A DNA stretch of 6,663 nucleotides from Spirochaetia bacterium UBA5368 (GTDB lineage Bacteria; Spirochaetota; UBA4802; UBA5368). The position numbers were made by a program, and so were the translations under genes. The stretch lies in contig DHPI01000079.1 in the NCBI GenBank assembly GCA_002407865.1, positions 59,250-65,912 of the forward strand, written 5' to 3'. The notes under the pieces were generated by a model. The model saw only the letters and a list, made by a program, of their open reading frames with translations. It made no database searches and was not told the origin of the DNA. Shown here piece after piece: positions 2-6,628 of the stretch. The stretch's first letter is position 1, and every line of letters starts with the position of its first letter.

Positions 2-964
2 AGCGGGAGTTATGTTACGCACATGCTTCCGTACTTTGCCGAAAAAGGCATTTGTGTGTCAAAGGGGATCAGTGTCGGCAACATGCTGAATACAGATCTC
101 GCTGATTGCCTCGATTATCTGAAAGACGATCCCGAAACGAAATCGGTAGCGTTGTATGTAGAGGGCATACCCTCCGGGGAAAAATTTATGCGCGCCGCGC
201 GGGAGATTACCAGGGAAAAGCCGGTCGTGGCGTATTATGTCAGCGGTTCTGAAGCCGGCGCACGCTCGTCGGCGTCGCATACCGGCGCTATCGGTGGGCC
301 GGCTGAAATCTACGAGGCAGTTTTCAGGCAGACTGGAATAATGCATGCAAAAACAATAATGGAATTATATGATTTCGCGTATGCGATGTCCCTGCTCCCG
401 ATGATGAACGGCAATCGAGTGGCTATCGTGTCAAATTCGGGCGGGCCCGCGGCGTCGCTTGCTCACGCGAGCAACCTGTACGGTTTTGATGTGCCGCTGT
501 TTTCCGATGATCTCCAGAAAAAGCTTCGCGCGATCATCCCACCGGTTGGTTCAACACGTAATCCAATGGATTATACAATGAGCCTGGATATGAAAACATT
601 CCTTAATAGCTGTCTTGAGCTGATATTACAAAGCGGTGAAATCGATGCCGTTTTACTGTACGGAGTATTCGATTCGAGCCATATAACGGAGAAATTCGAC
701 AGGATAGGAGTCAACCTTCCAATTGAACCGTACATTGTAATGCTGGATGAAACCATGAAAGAATTCGCTGCGATTATCCAACGGCAGTCGCTACCCGTTA
801 TTATCTCGACGTTCTTCTGTCATACGGACAGCAGAATCGACGAAGTTCGCCGTGCAGGCATACCGGTATTTGAAGGCCCTGAAAGGGCCGCTGCGGCGCT
901 GTATGCGCTGCGGCGTTACAGTATGTATCGAATGGCGAGGGAAAACACAAAGGAACGGATTTAA
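2..964 (+). CDS. NDP-forming acyl-CoA synthetase, alpha-type subunit (5'-truncated by window edge)
   Basis: The reading frame is open from base 2, and the residues before the first ATG (23) already fit the family (a SGSYVTH stretch), so the true start lies left of the window. The visible part matches the succinyl-CoA-synthetase-like domain: SVGN near the start, then LYVEGI, then SASHTGA, whose His (codon 278-280) is the expected phosphohistidine relaying phosphate between acyl-phosphate and nucleotide. Further on, VAIVSNSGGPAA and STRNPMDYT are typical of the second CoA-ligase half. Known family members make acyl-CoA from acid, CoA and ATP or GTP, or run in reverse to make ATP. About 320 residues are visible and no ATP-grasp domain follows, so this looks like a separate alpha subunit whose beta subunit is encoded elsewhere; the missing N-terminus should be the CoA-binding domain. 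The substrate cannot be told. The gene converges on the minus-strand selenoprotein unit, and its TAA overlaps that unit's last stop. Confidence 0.85.
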   Translation, partial: SGSYVTHMLPYFAEKGICVSKGISVGNMLNTDLADCLDYLKDDPETKSVALYVEGIPSGEKFMRAAREITREKPVVAYYVSGSEAGARSSASHTGAIGGPAEIYEAVFRQTGIMHAKTIMELYDFAYAMSLLPMMNGNRVAIVSNSGGPAASLAHASNLYGFDVPLFSDDLQKKLRAIIPPVGSTRNPMDYTMSLDMKTFLNSCLELILQSGEIDAVLLYGVFDSSHITEKFDRIGVNLPIEPYIVMLDETMKEFAAIIQRQSLPVIISTFFCHTDSRIDEVRRAGIPVFEGPERAAAALYALRRYSMYRMARENTKERI

Positions 965-978
965 TCCGTCCCTTTGTG
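946..978. terminator. Bidirectional hairpin terminator between convergent genes, both stops in its loop
   Basis: The arms 946-961 and 963-978 form an almost perfect inverted repeat (CACAAAGG.ACGGAT against ATCCGT.CCTTTGTG) with one A-C mismatch. The central TTAA at 961-964 supplies TAA to the plus-strand synthetase (962-964) and to the minus-strand small selenoprotein (963-961). Read on the minus strand the hairpin is followed at once by TTTT, a short intrinsic-terminator tail. Read on the plus strand the nearest T run (999-1004) is about 20 bases away, so termination there may be weaker. Confidence 0.7.
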
Positions 979-1137
979 CGTGGAATCAAGTGCGTGCGTT
1001 TTTTCCTCATGAGCCTTGTTCTGATCCACAGAACATGTCTGCGACATTCAGGTTGGCACGCCAAATTTCGGTAAGATCCATTTATTGAGCGCGAACCATA
1101 CAATAAAAATCAATACGTAAATGAGAAACGAGTTCAT
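961..1137 (-). CDS. Candidate small membrane selenoprotein (in-frame UGA = Sec30)
   Basis: Starting at ATG 1137, the frame encodes 29 residues (MNSFLIYVLIFIVWFALNKW, then ILPKFGVPT), an in-frame TGA at 1050-1048, then 28 more codons to TAA at 963-961; 58 residues if TGA is Sec. Residues 4-17 form one membrane span with a short N-terminus, followed by a basic stretch and GVPT-Sec-MSQTC, so Sec30 and Cys35 lie four residues apart beyond the membrane. The tail is hydrophilic and charged. Three things support read-through: a SECIS-like hairpin with the usual spacing directly after TGA, an end exactly inside the shared terminator hairpin, and a preceding gene with a clear Sec codon. A strong Shine-Dalgarno (AGAGGG, 1150-1145) lies 7 bases before the ATG, and only 13 bases separate it from the HesB-like stop. 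I do not recognise the family; a membrane-tethered thiol/selenol redox protein is an inference. The alternative is a 29-residue peptide ending at TGA, with possible restart at the adjacent ATG. Confidence 0.68.
1012..1040 (-). promoter_or_regulatory. SECIS-like stem-loop of the small selenoprotein gene
   Basis: Starting 7 bases after TGA 1050-1048, the minus-strand RNA can form a stem. Bases 1035-1029 (UGUUCUG) pair perfectly with 1023-1017 (CAGAACA) around the loop UGGAU (1028-1024). Below this, 1037 pairs with 1015, 1039 with 1013 and 1040 with 1012, separated by two single mismatches. The first loop G (1027) is 21 nt after the UGA. A short stem with a G-containing apical loop about 16-37 nt after UGA is the known bacterial SECIS form recognised by SelB. 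Confidence 0.65.
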
Positions 1138-1144
1138 AAAATTT

Positions 1145-1150
1145 CCCTCT
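1145..1150 (-). promoter_or_regulatory. Ribosome binding site of the small selenoprotein gene
   Basis: AGAGGG reads on the minus strand immediately after the HesB-like stop (1153-1151), with 7 bases (AAATTTT) before ATG 1137. It fixes the start of a gene too short and too interrupted for routine calling, and indicates translation from the same mRNA as the HesB-like gene. Confidence 0.7.
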
Positions 1151-1456
1151 TTACGAGCAGCGTGATCCGCCTTCAACTGTAAAACCCGCTCCATAAGGAG
1201 TTTCGTGATAATCAATCGTCAATGGATTACCGGTTTCCACAAAACGCCGCACATCCTTATCAAGAAGTATGTGTATATCGTTTTCCTGTACTACATAATC
1301 GGTGCTGTTTTCCGACTCGTCCAGAGCCAGTCCCAGACGGGGTCCTCCTCAACCCACGCCAGAGAATACAATGCGCAGGGCTGGACTGGTCAATCCGGAC
1401 TCCATAAACACTTTGCTTAACTTTTCTTTCGCTGTCGCGGTAACTTTAATCGCCAT
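1151..1456 (-). CDS. HesB/IscA-like selenoprotein (in-frame UGA = Sec36)
   Basis: ATG 1456 to TAA 1153-1151 gives 101 residues with one internal TGA at 1351-1349. The product begins MAIKVTATAKEKL, then has ALRIVFSGVG-Sec-GGPRLGLALDE, ILLDKDV, LTIDYHETPYGAGF and ends GGSRCS. This is the A-type iron-sulfur carrier fold. Sec36 sits where IscA has its first conserved cysteine (SGC-SG), and Cys100 lies in the C-terminal ligand region, where IscA usually has a CxC pair but only one Cys is seen here. HesB-like selenoproteins with Sec in a GxGUGGP context are known, so I take TGA as Sec rather than stop; the coding pattern continues unbroken after it and a SECIS-like hairpin follows. The likely role is cytoplasmic Fe-S cluster binding or redox chemistry. 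A Shine-Dalgarno (GAGGTG) precedes the ATG, and a sigma70-like promoter lies 40 bases upstream. The small membrane selenoprotein follows in the same transcript. Confidence 0.93.
1318..1339 (-). promoter_or_regulatory. SECIS-like stem-loop of the HesB-like gene
   Basis: Downstream of TGA 1351-1349 the minus-strand RNA pairs 1339-1332 (CGUCUGGG) with 1325-1318 (UCUGGACG) in eight base pairs, three of them G-U, around the loop ACUGGC (1331-1326). The first loop G (1328) is 21 nt after the UGA, identical to the second gene's element. The structure lies inside the coding sequence, as bacterial SECIS elements do. Some wobble pairs and an alternative GACU/AGUC pairing make the exact fold uncertain. 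Confidence 0.65.
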
Positions 1457-1584: not shown

Positions 1585-2253
1585 TTACCAGTCGTCGCTC
1601 TGGCGGTCGGTATATTTTTCGCGGACACGCGCAGTAATGTCATCCAGATAAAAATAATTCCACATGCGGAGGCGGCCTGAATTACCCGGTTTATATAAGA
1701 ACTTCATTATTTCCATTTGCCGCTGTTGTGTAAGGTGCTTATCTTCCTGCGATATGTCGTCAGAAAGGGTCGTCGTCAATTTTCTCCAGCCGAGATAATT
1801 GAGCTTGCCGAATGAAAGCCTGTGTGTGCGCCCGTCGGCGTCTTTGAGAAACATGGAAAGTTCACCGGAGAAGTTTTTACCGTACACCCAGATTGAGATC
1901 GATTTGCAGTATTTGTCTATGATTATCGGTTTCGGCGGTGTGATTGTGAGCGCATCACCGACTTTTCCAAAGAACTTTGCGCCCAGATATTTTTTCGATT
2001 CCTTAATTGGCGCGGGAAACTGATCTCGTATTGCGATGCCTGCCTGCTGATCATGGGACTTCGTGAAAGTGATGTCCTTATCCGCGTACGGTGTCGTTTC
2101 GAAATCCTCAATCGTAATTTCGGTATACAACTGATCGCCGGTAACTACTGTTTCAGAATCGGCGGGTGTTCTGGGTGTTTCTGTTTTTCCCTGGGCATAT
2201 GCGGCAATGCCGAAAATCATTACAAAAGCCAGTATGGCAACGATTCGTTTCAT
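1585..2253 (-). CDS. flaA: Flagellar filament outer layer (sheath) protein FlaA
   Basis: The start MKRIVAIL at 2253 is chosen over an upstream in-frame ATG (2292) because GGAGGGG (2268-2262) lies 8 bases before it and it gives a clean signal peptide: hydrophobic residues 4-19 with cleavage likely after AYA20. The mature part has ITIEDFE (46-52), a KKYLGAKFF strand, TPPKPI, SISIWVYGKNFSGEL (118-132), KDADGRTHRLSFGKLNYLGW (137-156) and a C-terminal YFYLDDI with an acidic DDW end. This pattern is that of spirochaete FlaA, which is exported to the periplasm and coats the FlaB core of the periplasmic flagella, shaping filament curvature and motility. At 222 residues it is in the size range of Leptospira FlaA proteins; which paralogue (FlaA1 or FlaA2) cannot be decided. 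No second flaA or other flagellar gene is in the window. It has its own promoter (2334-2362) and terminator, so it is probably monocistronic. Confidence 0.88.
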   Translation of the reverse strand: MKRIVAILAFVMIFGIAAYAQGKTETPRTPADSETVVTGDQLYTEITIEDFETTPYADKDITFTKSHDQQAGIAIRDQFPAPIKESKKYLGAKFFGKVGDALTITPPKPIIIDKYCKSISIWVYGKNFSGELSMFLKDADGRTHRLSFGKLNYLGWRKLTTTLSDDISQEDKHLTQQRQMEIMKFLYKPGNSGRLRMWNYFYLDDITARVREKYTDRQSDDW

Positions 2254-2261
2254 GTGGCAAA

Positions 2262-2268
2262 CCCCTCC
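2262..2268 (-). promoter_or_regulatory. Ribosome binding site that sets the flaA start
   Basis: GGAGGGG on the minus strand is 8 bases before ATG 2253. It excludes the longer reading from ATG 2292, which would place 13 polar residues ahead of the signal peptide. Confidence 0.85.
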
Positions 2269-2333
2269 GTGAAAATTGGTGCGATATATCATTGCATTCT
2301 ATTGTATAATACCGCAACGTCTGTTTCGCTCAG

Positions 2334-2648: not shown

Positions 2649-4364
2649 ATGAACGCTGTCAGGAAAGTATCTTCGCTCCGCTCGATTTGGACAGGGAAGC
2701 GCTCTCGTCGGGGGAGTGCAAAAACGGCGCTTGTTTGGCTCGCAGCTTGGATCATTGTTTGTGTTGCCGGCGGCACGAGCGTGGCCGCGCAGACCGCGCC
2801 GACATATTCATGGTGCTGGTTTTTTTATGAAAAGGATTTGAATTCCCTCTATTCGACTGTCGCATATCGACCATTTTATGTGAAAACAACGCATGGCGAC
2901 AAAAGCGCCTTTGAGGCGTCGCTGATGCCTGTTGTCTACTGGAAATATACGCGGGAAAGAATGACCGAATGGAAATCGCTCTTCGGTCTTGTCGATTCGC
3001 TCGATTATATTCATACCGATGGGGTCGAGGATTACGATTTTGCCGCGTTTCCCCTTGTGTTTTACGGCGATTCCCCGGACCCGAAGGATAGATATTTCAT
3101 GATTATGCCGTTCGGGGGCACGGTGCGGGGAAAACTTGGGCAGGATAGAATTTCCGCGTACGTGTTTCCGGGTGTTGCGCTGTTCTTTGTTTTGCCGCCG
3201 TCAAATATCTATATTGCGCTTGCCTATCTGGCGGCGTCGTTTGTTCCCGCATATGTGGATTATGAAAGCAGGGAATATCATGCGAAAGGAATTTTCTGGC
3301 CGCTGATGCAGTGGGGTCAGAGCCCGGACCGCAAAGATATCAGGATACTGCCGCTGTATGCCCATAATTACAGAAAGGACCGTTACGATAATTATTCCTT
3401 TCTGCTGCTCGCGAATTTTCAGAATGTATCGGTTGGGCGTGATGAACAGAAAACGGCATTCATCCTTCCTTTTTACGGGAGGCGATGGAATACCTCCGGC
3501 AACAGCAATGCCAGCACGCTTTTCTGGCCTCTCTTCTCGTGGGGATATAATAAGAAAATGGGCGATTTCGAGCTTAATTTTCCCTGGCCGCTCGTGATGA
3601 TCCAGGATTCGGTATCGCCGTATATCCATAAACGAATTTTCTTTCCCGTGTACGGAAACTATGTCAATAACAACCAGCAGACGTTTTTCATCACGCCGTT
3701 GTATTTTACGCTAAAAAAGAAAGCTGAAAATTTTGTATCGGAATACTATATTAATGCCCTCATAGTCTGGTATTTTAAAAGGGATTATAAAAAATCGGCG
3801 GATCCGGTCTACGGCAGTTCGTGGCGGTATTTCAAGCTATGGCCGCTGTTTCATTACGAGCACGATACCAGGGGCAACGTATCGTTTAATTTCCTGTCAC
3901 TGCTTCCGTTTCGAGATCCGGAGGGATACGAAATGCTGTACCAGCCCTTCTGGACGCTTTTCGAATACAAAAAATTTTCGTCGGGGGAAAAACGGCTCGG
4001 CATTCTGCTGAGAACATATTATCAGAACTGGGGGGATGATTTTCTGCGAATAAAAATTCCCTTTCTTTTCAGCTATGGACGCTCGAACAATGTGTTGACG
4101 GAATTGTCTTTTTTGTGTTCGCTATTCGGGTATTATAGGGATGCGTCGGGAGAGCGATTACGTGTATTCTGGATACCGGTCAAACTCGCGGAAGGAGCAC
4201 CGGGGCTGGCGGGGGGCGGGGATTCGCCGGAGACGATGGAGGATGGGGCGTGTGAGGATGCCGTTTTGCGGAATGCCCTGCGGTATGGTTCGCGATGCGT
4301 AATCGGGGATGGAATCGGTATGCGAAATAACGACTATATGCACTATTCAATGATGGCATTTTAG
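2649..4364 (+). CDS. Secreted/envelope protein of unknown function with repeated hydrophobic-Pro-aromatic motifs
   Basis: I do not recognise this 571-residue protein. It has a long basic N-terminus (R5-K25), a hydrophobic core (about 27-47) and a likely signal-peptidase site near SVAA47, so it should be exported. The mature part is rich in Trp, Tyr and Phe and repeats a strand-like motif of two hydrophobics, Pro, a hydrophobic and an aromatic. Examples are FPLVFY (134-139), FWPL (216-219), ILPLY (233-237), ILPFY (272-276), FWPLF (292-296), FFPVY (331-335), ITPLY (348-352), WPLF (398-401) and LLPF (418-421). The alternation of such strands with charged, Asp/Lys-rich turns suggests a beta-rich, perhaps barrel-like, fold. 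From about residue 514 composition shifts to a Gly-rich, low-aromatic tail. The gene leads the mlaE-mlaF-mlaD cluster, 13 bases before mlaE, so an outer-membrane or periplasmic partner in lipid transport is an inference from position. No strong ribosome site precedes the ATG; an in-frame stop just upstream rules out a longer start. Confidence 0.75.
   Translation: MNAVRKVSSLRSIWTGKRSRRGSAKTALVWLAAWIIVCVAGGTSVAAQTAPTYSWCWFFYEKDLNSLYSTVAYRPFYVKTTHGDKSAFEASLMPVVYWKYTRERMTEWKSLFGLVDSLDYIHTDGVEDYDFAAFPLVFYGDSPDPKDRYFMIMPFGGTVRGKLGQDRISAYVFPGVALFFVLPPSNIYIALAYLAASFVPAYVDYESREYHAKGIFWPLMQWGQSPDRKDIRILPLYAHNYRKDRYDNYSFLLLANFQNVSVGRDEQKTAFILPFYGRRWNTSGNSNASTLFWPLFSWGYNKKMGDFELNFPWPLVMIQDSVSPYIHKRIFFPVYGNYVNNNQQTFFITPLYFTLKKKAENFVSEYYINALIVWYFKRDYKKSADPVYGSSWRYFKLWPLFHYEHDTRGNVSFNFLSLLPFRDPEGYEMLYQPFWTLFEYKKFSSGEKRLGILLRTYYQNWGDDFLRIKIPFLFSYGRSNNVLTELSFLCSLFGYYRDASGERLRVFWIPVKLAEGAPGLAGGGDSPETMEDGACEDAVLRNALRYGSRCVIGDGIGMRNNDYMHYSMMAF
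2922..3911 (+). repeat. Degenerate coding repeat: hydrophobic-x-Pro-hydrophobic-aromatic motif
   Basis: At least ten copies of the motif occur between residues 92 and 421 of the envelope protein, beginning with LMPVVY (92-97). Spacing is irregular (roughly 14 to 80 residues), and the DNA is not repeated closely, so the copies are old or selected at protein level. Two copies share FWPL followed by a Trp-Gly (FWPLMQWG and FWPLFSWG). Confidence 0.6.
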
Positions 4365-4377
4365 GCTTCAAAAGAAT

Positions 4378-5181
4378 ATGAAAATGAAAAATGAATTACG
4401 GGCGCGCATTCTCGGATTGTTCGATTTTATCGGCAGGGAGATTCTTGACTTTTTCGAGCAGACGGGATTTACCATACTGCTTCTGTTTCAAACGATATTT
4501 TATACAAAGCATGTGCTTAGAAAGTGGCAGGAAGTCGTAAAGCAGATGTATATTGCCGGGGTAAAAACCCTGCTGGTGTGTTCGCTGGTCGGTGTTTTTA
4601 CCGGAATGATTCTCGCGCTTCAGACCGGCGTTGAAATGAGTGAATACGGTCAGCAGGCGCAGGTGGGGCATCTTATTATCGCGAGCATGACGCGTGAGAT
4701 GGGCCCTTTCATGTCGGCGATCATCCTTATTGCGTCGGTTGGTTCGGCAATGGCGGCCGAGCTGGGAACGATGAAGGTGTCCGACGAGATTGACGCGCTC
4801 GAAATGATGTCGATAAGCCCCGTTTCCTTTCTCGTGATGCCCCGCGTTGTTGCGTTGTCGATCATGCTTCCCATTGTCTCCGTGTATATTATCACGCTTG
4901 CGTCAATAGGCGGAGGTGTTGTGGCAAACAGCCTTTTGCATGTTTCATATAATGTGTACTTCAAGCACCTGTTAAAGGGCATACATTTTAAGGCGATGTA
5001 TGTAGGGCTTTTGAAGGCGTATGTGTTCGGCATCATTATTTCCATAATAGGATGCGCGCGTGGCCTTAAGGCGGAAAGCGGCGAGCTTGGCGTGGGGCAT
5101 GCTACGCGCTCGGCGGTAGTTGCGTCGTTTCTTATGGTGCTGATTATAGGCTATATTATCACCGCGTTTTTCTATGGCTGA
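4378..5181 (+). CDS. mlaE: MlaE-type ABC lipid transporter permease
   Basis: The 267-residue product is the inner-membrane permease of an MCE-type lipid transporter, close in length to E. coli MlaE (260). An N-terminal amphipathic stretch (11-26) and hydrophobic segment (31-42) precede a core with several membrane spans (about 62-82, 111-127, 147-175 and 203-265 in two parts). Family signatures are VFTGMILALQ (73-82), TREMGP (105-110) and AELGTMKVSDEIDALEMM (127-144), the last forming the coupling helix contacted by the ATPase. MlaE dimers pair with MlaF and an MlaD hexamer to move phospholipids between inner and outer membranes. It follows the repeat protein by 13 bases, with no clear Shine-Dalgarno, and precedes mlaF by 11 bases, so translation is probably coupled. 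ATG 4384 is an equally possible start. Import or export direction cannot be told. Confidence 0.93.
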   Translation: MKMKNELRARILGLFDFIGREILDFFEQTGFTILLLFQTIFYTKHVLRKWQEVVKQMYIAGVKTLLVCSLVGVFTGMILALQTGVEMSEYGQQAQVGHLIIASMTREMGPFMSAIILIASVGSAMAAELGTMKVSDEIDALEMMSISPVSFLVMPRVVALSIMLPIVSVYIITLASIGGGVVANSLLHVSYNVYFKHLLKGIHFKAMYVGLLKAYVFGIIISIIGCARGLKAESGELGVGHATRSAVVASFLMVLIIGYIITAFFYG

Positions 5182-5192
5182 GATGGGTTTCT

Positions 5193-5942
5193 ATGATTAA
5201 ACTGATCAACGTACATAAGGCATTTAACGGAAAGCAGGTGCTCAAGGGATTTAATCTGAAGATTGAGCGGGGCGAATCTTTTGTCATTATAGGACAGTCG
5301 GGGATCGGAAAAACTGTCGCGCTGCGGCACATTGCCGGTCTTGTCGAGCCCGATTCGGGCGACGTGCTGATCGATGGCGTGAAAATGAGCGGAGCCAGCA
5401 GCGAGACGAGGAAAAAATTGCGGGAAAAGATGGGTGTTCTTTTTCAATCGGGGGCGCTGATAAGCTGGATGACCGTTGCTGAAAATGTAGCGCTGCCGCT
5501 TGCCGAACACAGGCTGTACCCGAAAAGCCAGATAGACGACATGGTGGATGAAAAGCTCCGGTTGTTGCAGCTGTTCGATGCGCGAAATAAAATACCGGCG
5601 GAGCTGAGCGGCGGCATGAAGAAACGTGTGGCGCTGGCGCGTGCGTTAATGAAGAGCCCCGAAATTATCCTTTATGACGAGCCGACAACCGGCCTCGATC
5701 CGGTGATGTCCAGCGTCATTAACGACCTCATACGGCAGATGCAGCATGATTTCAACGTTACATCGCTTGTGGTGACGCACGACATGAAAAGTGCCTTTCA
5801 TGTGGGCGACAGAATCGGTATGTTATACGATGGGGTGCTCGTCCAGTGCGATACGCCTGACGGCATCAAGAACAGCACGAATCAGGTCGTGCAGCAATTT
5901 ATCAACGGCTCGCTGGAAGGGCCGATAAAGGTGGTCGATTAG
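5193..5942 (+). CDS. mlaF: MlaF-type ABC transporter ATP-binding protein
   Basis: This 249-residue cytoplasmic ATPase has all nucleotide-binding motifs: Walker A GQSGIGKT (34-41), Q-loop Gln85 in FQSGALISW, ABC signature LSGGMKKR (138-145), Walker B IILYDEP (158-164) with catalytic Glu163, D-loop GLDP (167-170) and switch His196 in VVTHD. The FQSGAL-SW-TVAENV sequence after the Q-loop is typical of the MlaF subfamily that contacts MlaE. It energises lipid movement through the MlaE-MlaD channel. The length is close to E. coli MlaF (269). It starts 11 bases after mlaE and sits 35 bases before mlaD in the same direction. No STAS-domain MlaB, which stabilises MlaF in E. coli, is encoded here. Confidence 0.94.
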   Translation: MIKLINVHKAFNGKQVLKGFNLKIERGESFVIIGQSGIGKTVALRHIAGLVEPDSGDVLIDGVKMSGASSETRKKLREKMGVLFQSGALISWMTVAENVALPLAEHRLYPKSQIDDMVDEKLRLLQLFDARNKIPAELSGGMKKRVALARALMKSPEIILYDEPTTGLDPVMSSVINDLIRQMQHDFNVTSLVVTHDMKSAFHVGDRIGMLYDGVLVQCDTPDGIKNSTNQVVQQFINGSLEGPIKVVD

Positions 5943-5962
5943 CGCATTATTACATTGAGAGT

Positions 5963-5969
5963 AAGGAGG
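5963..5969 (+). promoter_or_regulatory. Strong ribosome binding site of mlaD
   Basis: AAGGAGG lies 8 bases before ATG 5978. It is far stronger than the sites before mlaE and mlaF, in keeping with the higher MlaD copy number (six per complex in E. coli); that link is inference. Confidence 0.8.
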
Positions 5970-5977
5970 CAACCGGC

Positions 5978-6628
5978 ATGAAGAATGAGATCGCGGTGGG
6001 AATTCTCTTCACTGTCGCCCTTGTTATCCTTGGCTATTTCACGATAATGGTCAAGGAAGAGATATTCGAGTCGAGGGAGTATTACATAATGAGCGCGCGT
6101 TTTCCGAATGTCGAGGGTCTGGAGTCTGGCGATGATGTCAAGGTCAACGGCGTAAAGGCCGGCGTTGTGAAGAACATATCTCTCGAGGGGGAGCATGTCT
6201 GCGCTTATTTCAAGATGTACAGCACATTTCCCATGTTCGAGAATTATCGCATTAAAATAGCGAATGAATCCGCCCTTGGCGGTAAATTTATCAGCATTTA
6301 TCCGGGCGTGAGGTTGTCAGAAGGAAAAATCCATCATGAAGTGATTGAGAAAACGAATCTCAAGGGATTTTCCGGTGACGATCCGATTGCGCTTATTTCC
6401 GATCTTATAGCCGATAACAGGGAAAGCATCAATGCCACGCTTCGGAACATACAGCAGATAACCGGAAAGATCAATTCCGGGCAGGGCACTCTCGGGAAGC
6501 TTGTTAACCAGGCGCAGGTGTACGATAATGCTAACGATATGGTGCGCGATCTTCGGAATACTCTTGAGGATGTCCGCGAGCAGGCGCCGGTCACAAGCTT
6601 TATCCGGGCTGCGCTTACCGCGTTTTAA
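5978..6628 (+). CDS. mlaD: MlaD-type MCE-domain lipid transport protein
   Basis: The 216-residue product has one N-terminal membrane anchor (about 5-24) and then an MCE domain (about 35-115): YYIMSARFPNVEGLESGDDVKVNGVKAGVVKNI is the conserved first half and ESALGGKFISIYPG the conserved later strand. In E. coli six MlaD subunits form a periplasmic ring with a lipid-conducting pore. The C-terminal part (about 130-200) is helical, with DPIALISDLIADNRESINATLRNI, a GQGTLGKLV element seen in many MCE proteins, and the usual end REQAPVTSF. The gene therefore appears complete, despite lying near the window edge. It is somewhat longer than E. coli MlaD (183) because of the C-terminal helices. No MlaC-like periplasmic carrier is visible downstream, but only 35 bases remain. 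Confidence 0.93.
   Translation: MKNEIAVGILFTVALVILGYFTIMVKEEIFESREYYIMSARFPNVEGLESGDDVKVNGVKAGVVKNISLEGEHVCAYFKMYSTFPMFENYRIKIANESALGGKFISIYPGVRLSEGKIHHEVIEKTNLKGFSGDDPIALISDLIADNRESINATLRNIQQITGKINSGQGTLGKLVNQAQVYDNANDMVRDLRNTLEDVREQAPVTSFIRAALTAF

What the first reader, a model, noticed from the sequence alone, without database searches (positions are those of the whole stretch)
961..1137. Candidate unrecognised small membrane selenoprotein with a Sec-x4-Cys motif
A frame with an excellent ribosome site encodes one membrane span, then GVPT-UGA-MSQTC, and continues past UGA to a TAA lying exactly in the terminator loop. A hairpin with seven perfect pairs and loop UGGAU follows the UGA at SECIS spacing. 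I do not know the family; the layout suggests a membrane-tethered selenol/thiol pair (Sec30, Cys35) next to an Fe-S-type selenoprotein. Conventional annotation would miss it altogether.
Basis: partly seen in the sequence, partly recalled or inferred. Interest (0 to 1): 0.93.

Follow-up and report, generated by a model that had tools for sequence, protein, structure and literature searches.

The report
Tiny membrane selenoprotein family, previously hidden
This gene belongs to a widespread family of tiny bacterial proteins, absent from the selenoprotein lists searched here, that are predicted to sit in the membrane, to carry selenocysteine at a codon which gene finders take for a stop, and likely to exchange electrons with the cell's thioredoxin system.

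Summary
The gene lies on the minus strand (1137..961): one predicted membrane helix, then WFALNKWILPKFGVPT-UGA-MSQTC and a charged tail, ending at a TAA in the loop of a strong hairpin. A HesB-like gene with its own in-frame UGA lies 13 nt upstream. Profile searches found the family in 202 of 1,077 sampled genomes of four phyla. The UGA is conserved, the region after it evolves as coding sequence up to the next stop, and a SECIS-like hairpin follows UGA far more often than it follows ordinary TGA stops (124 of 172 against 37 of 247). Natural Cys homologues exist; one is 92% identical over all 59 residues. No match was found in Pfam, NCBIfam or two published catalogues (the larger has 119 families). 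Neighbours recur: selenoprotein HesB, thioredoxin, thioredoxin reductase, ArsR, FmdB zinc ribbon, CcdA. Most likely mechanism (inferred): a membrane-tethered selenol/thiol pair that forms a Se-S bond and is reduced by thioredoxin. Selenocysteine insertion itself is not shown by experiment.

The parts
961..1137 (-). small membrane selenoprotein gene (58 codons plus TAA), Sec at codon 30
   Evidence: read with TGA=U; homologues with UGA in the same column
1066..1131 (-). codons 3-24, predicted single membrane helix
   Evidence: AlphaFold2 helix 3-24, first two 10-residue blocks pLDDT 89 and 86; the rest is low confidence
1048..1050 (-). in-frame UGA, predicted Sec30
   Evidence: in-frame TGA inside the aligned part of 201 of 216 profile-hit rows; 11 of the 15 other rows were fetched and all 11 have TGA 0-6 codons past the aligned end
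1017..1035 (-). bacterial SECIS-like hairpin, 7 pairs, loop UGGAU
   Evidence: covariation across 24 spirochaete members
1033..1035 (-). Cys35 codon, the predicted partner of Sec30
   Evidence: Cys 4-7 residues after U in 162 of 172 members and retained in all 14 Cys homologues
945..979 (-). terminator-like hairpin whose UAA loop is the stop codon
   Evidence: -24.5 kcal/mol, z -8.14; not listed by the simple terminator scan
1145..1149 (-). GAGGG ribosome binding site
   Evidence: sequence
1151..1456 (-). HesB-like selenoprotein gene upstream, UGA at codon 36 (1349-1351), motif GVGUGGPRLGL
   Evidence: the same arrangement in 19 of 175 loci, each upstream, same strand and with TGA

Best explanation
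The gene encodes a member of a widespread family of about 50-residue proteins, each predicted to have one membrane helix and to insert selenocysteine at a conserved in-frame UGA just after the motif ILPKxGxxT, and likely to work as a membrane-tethered selenol/thiol redox pair. Proposed steps: (a) UGA is read as Sec with the help of the hairpin 19 nt downstream and the cell's SelB and tRNA-Sec (components and hairpin seen; insertion inferred). (b) The helix holds the protein in the inner membrane with Sec on the cytoplasmic face (inferred from more positive charge on the Sec side). (c) Sec30 attacks an oxidised or sulfur-loaded substrate at the membrane and forms a Se-S bond with Cys35 (inferred). 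(d) Thioredoxin, fed by thioredoxin reductase, reduces that bond; in spirochaetes and SAR324 the partner may be the selenoprotein HesB (inferred from gene neighbours).
For: Family and UGA: 28 of 392 spirochaete-phylum, 144 of 345 deltaproteobacterial-phylum, 3 of 288 Verrucomicrobia-phylum and 27 of 52 SAR324 genomes. In-frame TGA inside the aligned part in 201 of 216 rows; 11 of the 15 others were fetched and all 11 have TGA 0-6 codons beyond the aligned end. Coding after UGA. Hairpin: 124 of 172 members fit the published bSECIS model against 37 of 247 TGA stops of neighbouring genes; best stem 5.9 bp against 3.65 bp in synonymous-codon shuffles, 155 of 172 above their own null mean; upstream control near zero; covariation. 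Cys homologues. Machinery: selB and tRNA-Sec in the window's genome; in the spirochaete sample selB in 27 of 27 carriers and 12 of 20 non-carriers. Redox role: of 175 loci, Trx-fold gene within three genes in 14, TrxB-type in 5, CcdA-type in 6, ArsR in 12, FmdB in 19, HesB-Sec upstream in 19; Trx, TrxB, FmdB and ArsR examples score above NCBIfam cut-offs. Charge: 1.8 K/R in the 13 residues before Sec and 5.0 in the tail against 0.5 at the N terminus, mean per member.
Against: No experiment shows Sec insertion or any activity. The tail has no confident fold. The second Cys is absent within 12 residues in 6 of 172 members (L041, L042, L076, L077, L092, L093) and 9-12 residues away in 4. Most loci (125 of 175) have none of the six neighbour types close by on the same strand (some flanks are short), and no background rate for such neighbours was measured. 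In the other two phyla selB does not separate carriers from non-carriers (31 of 35 against 40 of 45); four carrier genomes had no detectable selB. 48 of 172 members do not fit the bSECIS model, and in many SAR324 members the hairpin is no better than synonymous shuffles. The best Cys orthologue is one sequence from a 755-base contig.
Confidence: 0.62

Rival explanations
1. It is a selenoprotein, but Sec30 and Cys35 hold a metal or metalloid ion at the membrane instead of doing redox chemistry.
For: Neighbours include ArsR/SmtB regulators above cut-off, FmdB zinc ribbons and HesB; the 2026 review argues that many selenoproteins in transport bind metals; one of seven members touches MerT weakly, E 0.12.
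Against: Thioredoxin or thioredoxin reductase genes overlap or abut the gene in six loci of two phyla; the U-C spacing varies and 6 of 172 members lack the second Cys.
Confidence: 0.2
2. It is a membrane-bound carrier of sulfane sulfur or selenium: Sec30 takes a persulfide or selenide at the membrane and passes it to partners such as HesB.
For: In L091 the gene sits between an MBL-fold protein and a thioredoxin-like gene, and L088 has the same arrangement; the MBL protein of L091's genome matches a sulfur transferase/dioxygenase model and a glyoxalase II model about equally; ArsR neighbours match the BigR model; HesB is next door in 19 of 175 loci.
Against: The MBL neighbour is seen in only two loci, both SAR324, and the MBL and BigR matches are all below curated cut-offs.
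Confidence: 0.13
3. UGA is the true stop: the product is a 29-residue membrane peptide and the downstream hairpin is incidental.
For: Gene finders call it so: 97 of 120 listed database relatives end right before the Sec column; no direct evidence of read-through.
Against: Coding signature past UGA; Cys in the column in 14 proteins, one 92% identical over the full length; no hit row has TAA or TAG without a TGA; hairpins above control.
Confidence: 0.03
4. UGA is read as tryptophan or by general read-through, not as selenocysteine.
For: Eight of 120 listed database entries carry W at the column, one carries S.
Against: The N part of W entry P0003 equals the 28-residue entry P0018, so W is most likely a TGA called with code 4; apart from W, the full-length entries carry Cys (14) or Ser (1); the window's genome has selB and tRNA-Sec, and the MlaE-type gene of the window ends in TGA.
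Confidence: 0.01

Closest known systems
HesB-like selenoprotein (TIGR01911 / NF038090), the upstream neighbour
   Same: UGA-encoded Sec; adjacent and same strand in 19 of 175 loci
   Different: PF01521 domain and motif UxGP, 101 residues, no membrane helix noted; a partner, not the family
Putative mercuric transport selenoprotein (PF02411 MerT, C/SxxU)
   Same: membrane transport protein with predicted Sec (listed in PMC13188914 Table 1)
   Different: MerT has several helices (recalled); C/SxxU instead of U-x4-C; only one of seven members touches PF02411, E 0.12
KCU-star and UXX-star selenoproteins (NF033934, NF041114, NF041211)
   Same: selenoproteins named after a short Sec motif; small size is recalled
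   Different: other motifs; no NCBIfam model matches any of seven members at E 1
Eukaryotic SELENOK and SELENOS (recalled, not tested)
   Same: single-span membrane proteins with Sec in a short tail
   Different: Sec lies close to the C terminus, host is eukaryotic, no sequence comparison made here
Hypothetical protein GOS_A (PMC2398784)
   Same: selenoprotein of unknown function without a known domain
   Different: 2 Sec and 155 Cys sequences reported, the reverse of the Sec-rich family here; its sequence was not in the passages seen and no model is listed, so identity could not be tested

Membership tests
bacterial selenoprotein (general) | in-frame UGA conserved at a Sec/Cys column | tested here: met
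   TGA in the aligned part of 201 of 216 rows; Cys in the column in 14 of 120 listed database relatives
[quoted passage not shown]
   window: loop UGGAU, 19 nt, -9.7 with flanks, bare hairpin -7.2; 124 of 172 members against 37 of 247 control stops, or 100 of 172 against 27 of 200 with bare hairpins, where the window fails on energy
bacterial selenoprotein (general) | Sec machinery in the genome | tested here: met
   window's genome: selB 302 bits, tRNA-Sec 74.6 bits, both on contig C59; all carriers tested, this one included: 64 of 68 with selB
bacterial selenoprotein (general) | selenium incorporated into the protein | not testable with these tools
   needs 75Se labelling or mass spectrometry
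HesB-like selenoprotein (neighbour gene 1456..1151) | Fe-S_biosyn domain with UxGP motif | tested here: met
   PF01521 over its cut-off; motif UGGP
HesB-like selenoprotein (neighbour gene 1456..1151) | score above the curated cut-off of TIGR01911 or NF038090 | tested here: not met
   39.3 against 66.35 and 60.3 against 85 bits; a divergent relative
MerT mercuric transport protein | match to PF02411 | tested here: not met
   one of seven members, E 0.12
any Pfam or NCBIfam family | match to a model | tested here: not met
   seven members scanned: NCBIfam none at E 1; Pfam only two hits, E 0.12 and 0.17, one member each
published prokaryotic selenoprotein catalogues | listed family with this motif or architecture | tested here: inconclusive
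   none recognised by name or motif in PMC13188914 Table 1, 119 families or PMC9312934 Table 1; GOS_A could not be compared

The most novel reading that the evidence does not exclude
A new class of bacterial selenoprotein: a single-span, membrane-anchored selenol that couples the cytoplasmic thioredoxin system to the membrane. It is present in about four in ten sampled deltaproteobacterial-phylum genomes and half of SAR324 genomes, branches into two-Sec variants, and went unseen because annotation cuts it to 29 residues.
Probability: 0.45. Interest if true: 0.92.

Novelty: new variant of a known kind. Interest (0 to 1): 0.86.

Why it matters
If true, one of the commoner selenoproteins of Desulfobacterota-type bacteria, SAR324 and some spirochaetes is missing from both catalogues searched here. 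It would give bacteria a membrane-tethered selenol comparable in layout to eukaryotic single-span selenoproteins (recalled), and would offer a partner for HesB-like selenoproteins, whose role the 2026 review leaves largely open. It also shows that very short Sec proteins can escape present selenoprotein finders, and supplies an alignment, a Cys orthologue and a SECIS set with which annotation can be corrected at once.

Tried and rejected
Protein search with the single window sequence found nothing; the profile of seven members did. Rfam found no SECIS-type match in the window, only a snoRNA hit below its gathering score. PDB sequences gave one hit at E 4.3. A structure-library search was not run: the model is one confident helix with a low-confidence tail, so matches would mean little. 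selB presence as a correlate works only in the spirochaete sample, where selB is not universal. A simple 71-nt fold does not show the hairpin as unusual, nor does a 43-nt fold after the HesB UGA (z 0.30).

Rows dropped or biased: L148 and L180 could not be parsed by my motif script and were dropped; L111-L118 repeat earlier loci and were merged; L015, L016, L045, L048, L075 and L079 repeat others and were left out; 175 loci became 172 after removing proteins with identical first 45 residues. My script required G near -4 and U (U or C in the first batch), and chose the best frame by a score that rewards LP[KR], T-U and a nearby C, so the figures at those columns lean upward; the unbiased TGA count is the row count. 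In L013 the frame runs on to 208 codons, past a terminator-like repeat, so its true end is unclear. In the column scan the first group wrongly included two deltaproteobacterial loci (L013, L014); they were left out of alignment A4. Covariation: three of five measures reach values that 0-2 of 500 shuffles match; pairs with a change on both sides (132 of 500) and further pair types (497 of 500) do not exceed shuffles; seven members with a 6-nt loop sit one column out of register. In one search the region after the stop was counted only for pairs at least 60% identical there; how many of the 16 pairs that was is not printed.

Literature searches for an earlier description. Papers seen: PMC13188914 (abstract, sections 5, 7 and 9, passages), PMC9312934 (abstract, tables section), PMC12013277, PMC2398784, PMC1088965 and PMC5029168 (passages and listings only). 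Asked for and not held, so not checked: two papers by Haft and colleagues, the Olavius selenoproteome paper, and Deng et al. 2026, which the review cites as naming new candidates.

Full report
What is there. On the minus strand of the window, 1137 to 961, lies a frame of 58 codons with UGA at codon 30: MNSFLIYVLIFIVWFALNKWILPKFGVPT-U-MSQTCSVDQNKAHEEKTHALDSTHKGTD. It starts 13 nt after the stop of a HesB-like gene (1456..1151) that has its own in-frame UGA at codon 36. Its TAA is the three-base loop of a 16-pair hairpin, -24.5 kcal/mol, z -8.1; the convergent plus-strand frame ends at 964, in the same hairpin.

It is a family. The single protein found nothing in the protein database. A scan of the species-genome collection found six relatives with tblastn support, in records titled Proteobacteria, Verrucomicrobiia, Spirochaetes, SAR324, Deltaproteobacteria and Desulfuromonadales; all six carry TGA at the same column and a Cys a few codons later. 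A profile of these seven (A1) found the family in 28 of 392 sampled genomes of the window's phylum. A wider profile (A2) found it in 144 of 345, 3 of 288 and 27 of 52 genomes of the phyla of L013, L010 and L012. That is 202 of 1,077 genomes. The window's genome holds a second copy (L099).

The UGA column. Of 216 hit rows in those four searches, 201 have an in-frame TGA inside the aligned part, and none has TAA or TAG without a TGA. Of the other 15 I fetched 11, and all 11 have TGA 0-6 codons beyond the aligned end; four were not examined. Among the 120 listed database relatives (of 236 found), 97 end immediately before the column, 14 have Cys there, 8 have Trp and 1 has Ser. The Trp entries look like TGA called with code 4: P0003 continues the exact 28 residues of P0018. 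All 14 Cys entries keep a second Cys. P0006 (Cys; one entry, 755-base contig) and L083 (Sec) are 54 of 59 identical without gaps.

Translated past UGA. In 16 independent close pairs of members, substitutions at codon positions 1/2/3 are 45/17/106 before UGA, 49/43/90 between UGA and the next stop, and 33/44/25 after that stop. The third-position excess after UGA has p 9e-6, and it differs from the region after the stop with p 7e-5. It holds for the hairpin part and for the later codons separately (p 2e-4 and 0.012).

SECIS. Published limits for bacterial SECIS elements are loop 3-9 nt with G in its first two positions, stem of 4 bp or more, 16-37 nt from UGA, energy -7.5 kcal/mol or lower (PMC13188914, section 5). 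With folding in flanked segments, 124 of 172 members fit, against 37 of 247 TGA stops of neighbouring genes (p 3e-33). A stricter version that counts bare hairpins gives 100 of 172 against 27 of 200 TGA stops and 40 of 300 stops of all kinds, and there the window itself misses on energy. Against synonymous-codon shuffles the best stem is 5.9 bp against 3.65 bp, 155 of 172 above their own null mean, 82 of 172 at p 0.05. An earlier energy test on 85 members gave mean z -1.34 (51 of 85 below -1), and -0.21 in the control region upstream (18 of 84 below -1); most SAR324 members from L086 on show no signal in that test. In 24 spirochaete members aligned without gaps, five of the seven stem pairs show changes on both sides, 72.6% of cells pair, and slides of the partner give 43-55%; two of the five measures do not exceed their shuffles.

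Machinery. The window's genome has selB over its cut-off and tRNA-Sec, 1.7 kb apart on one contig. In the spirochaete sample 27 of 27 carriers but 12 of 20 non-carriers have selB (p 4e-4). In 80 genomes of the other two phyla 31 of 35 carriers and 40 of 45 non-carriers have it, so it says nothing there, and four carriers lack a detectable selB; completeness of those genomes is not told.

Anatomy. Across 172 members: Trp at -16 in 159, Pro at -7 in 172, Lys/Arg at -6 in 161, Thr at -1 in 163, Met at +1 in 117, Cys at +5 in 128 and at +4 to +7 in 162; median length 52 residues. Gly near -4 and U were required by my script, and its score favoured some of the other columns (see Tried and rejected). 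AlphaFold2 gives one helix, residues 3-24, and a low-confidence tail. K/R average 0.5 at the N terminus, 1.8 in the 13 residues before Sec and 5.0 in the tail, which by the positive-inside rule (general knowledge) puts Sec in the cytoplasm. This is a prediction. Divergent relatives have SUG, GUG or VUG at the column, and four (L119, L120, L122, L131) have a second in-frame UGA in PTUDGxxC.

Neighbours. In 175 loci, a HesB with its own TGA lies upstream on the same strand in 19, the window included (15 of 31 spirochaete and 4 of 20 SAR324 loci); an FmdB zinc ribbon lies within 250 nt on the same strand in 19; a thioredoxin-fold gene lies within three genes in 14 (7 close and same strand), ArsR in 12 (6), CcdA-type in 6 (2), TrxB-type in 5 (4); 50 of 175 have at least one of these close by. 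These classes are BLAST clusters that I labelled; Trx, TrxB, FmdB and ArsR examples exceed their NCBIfam cut-offs, while the CcdA and MBL examples match below cut-off. TrxB directly downstream (offset -4 to 5 nt) in L012, L080 and L093, and thioredoxin-like genes directly downstream (-8 to 8 nt) in L030, L088 and L091, are the strongest links because they occur in two phyla; L053 (L118) adds a TrxB 198 nt upstream in a third. I did not measure a background rate; by my estimate one to two loci in a hundred would have a thioredoxin-system gene so near, against 22 of 175 (Trx, TrxB or CcdA within three genes).

Mechanism. Shown: a conserved UGA column that is replaceable by Cys, with a coding signature after it and SECIS-like structure, in genomes that mostly have the Sec machinery. 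Inferred: Sec insertion, membrane topology, Se-S bond with the nearby Cys, reduction by thioredoxin. I put the selenoprotein claim at about 0.95 and the thioredoxin-linked redox claim at about 0.65 given that; the rivals are a metal site and a persulfide or selenium carrier.

Novelty. Seven members match no NCBIfam model (release of June 2026) at E 1 and no Pfam model better than E 0.12. I recognise no such family in the 119-family table of PMC13188914 or the table of PMC9312934. GOS_A (2 Sec, 155 Cys sequences) could not be compared. Papers of Haft and colleagues, of Deng and colleagues and on Olavius were not held; families of theirs that Table 1 lists with an NCBIfam or Pfam model were covered by the scan as far as those libraries hold the models.

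Noticed in passing
L119, L120, L122, L131: Relatives with two in-frame UGAs, PSUGAP and later PTUDGxxC; in L131 the second UGA is followed by a hairpin-like stretch, seen by eye and not folded.
   Followed up: partly
L121, L123, L124, L125, L127, L128-L130: Divergent relatives with GUG, VUG, SUG, or SF[SG]CPTU at or near the column: a wider superfamily than the profile captures.
   Followed up: partly
G000 contig C61 27698-27811 (L099): A second, shorter paralogue with UGA in the window's own genome.
   Followed up: partly
L159, L172, L174 (upstream ArsR); L159, L171, L206 (FmdB then thioredoxin downstream): A recurring cluster: ArsR ending at the start of this gene, and downstream FmdB and thioredoxin, with a small Cys-rich protein between in L143, L159 and L172; looks like a regulated thiol-redox operon.
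   Followed up: partly
P0003, P0004, P0008, P0009, P0011-P0013, P0118: Database proteins with Trp at the Sec column, most likely UGA translated with code 4 in metagenome gene calling.
   Followed up: partly
window 1151-1456 (-): The HesB-like selenoprotein scores below the curated cut-offs of both HesB selenoprotein models, so automatic annotation may miss it too.
   Followed up: yes
window 945-979: One hairpin holds the stop codons of two convergent genes in or overlapping its loop.
   Followed up: partly
window 2649-4361 (+): A 571-residue protein with no Pfam or NCBIfam match at E 0.001, just before an MlaE/MlaF/MlaD-type lipid transport operon (4378-6625).
   Followed up: no
window 1588-2292 (-): A FlaA-like protein (flagellar outer layer), consistent with a spirochaete.
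   Followed up: no
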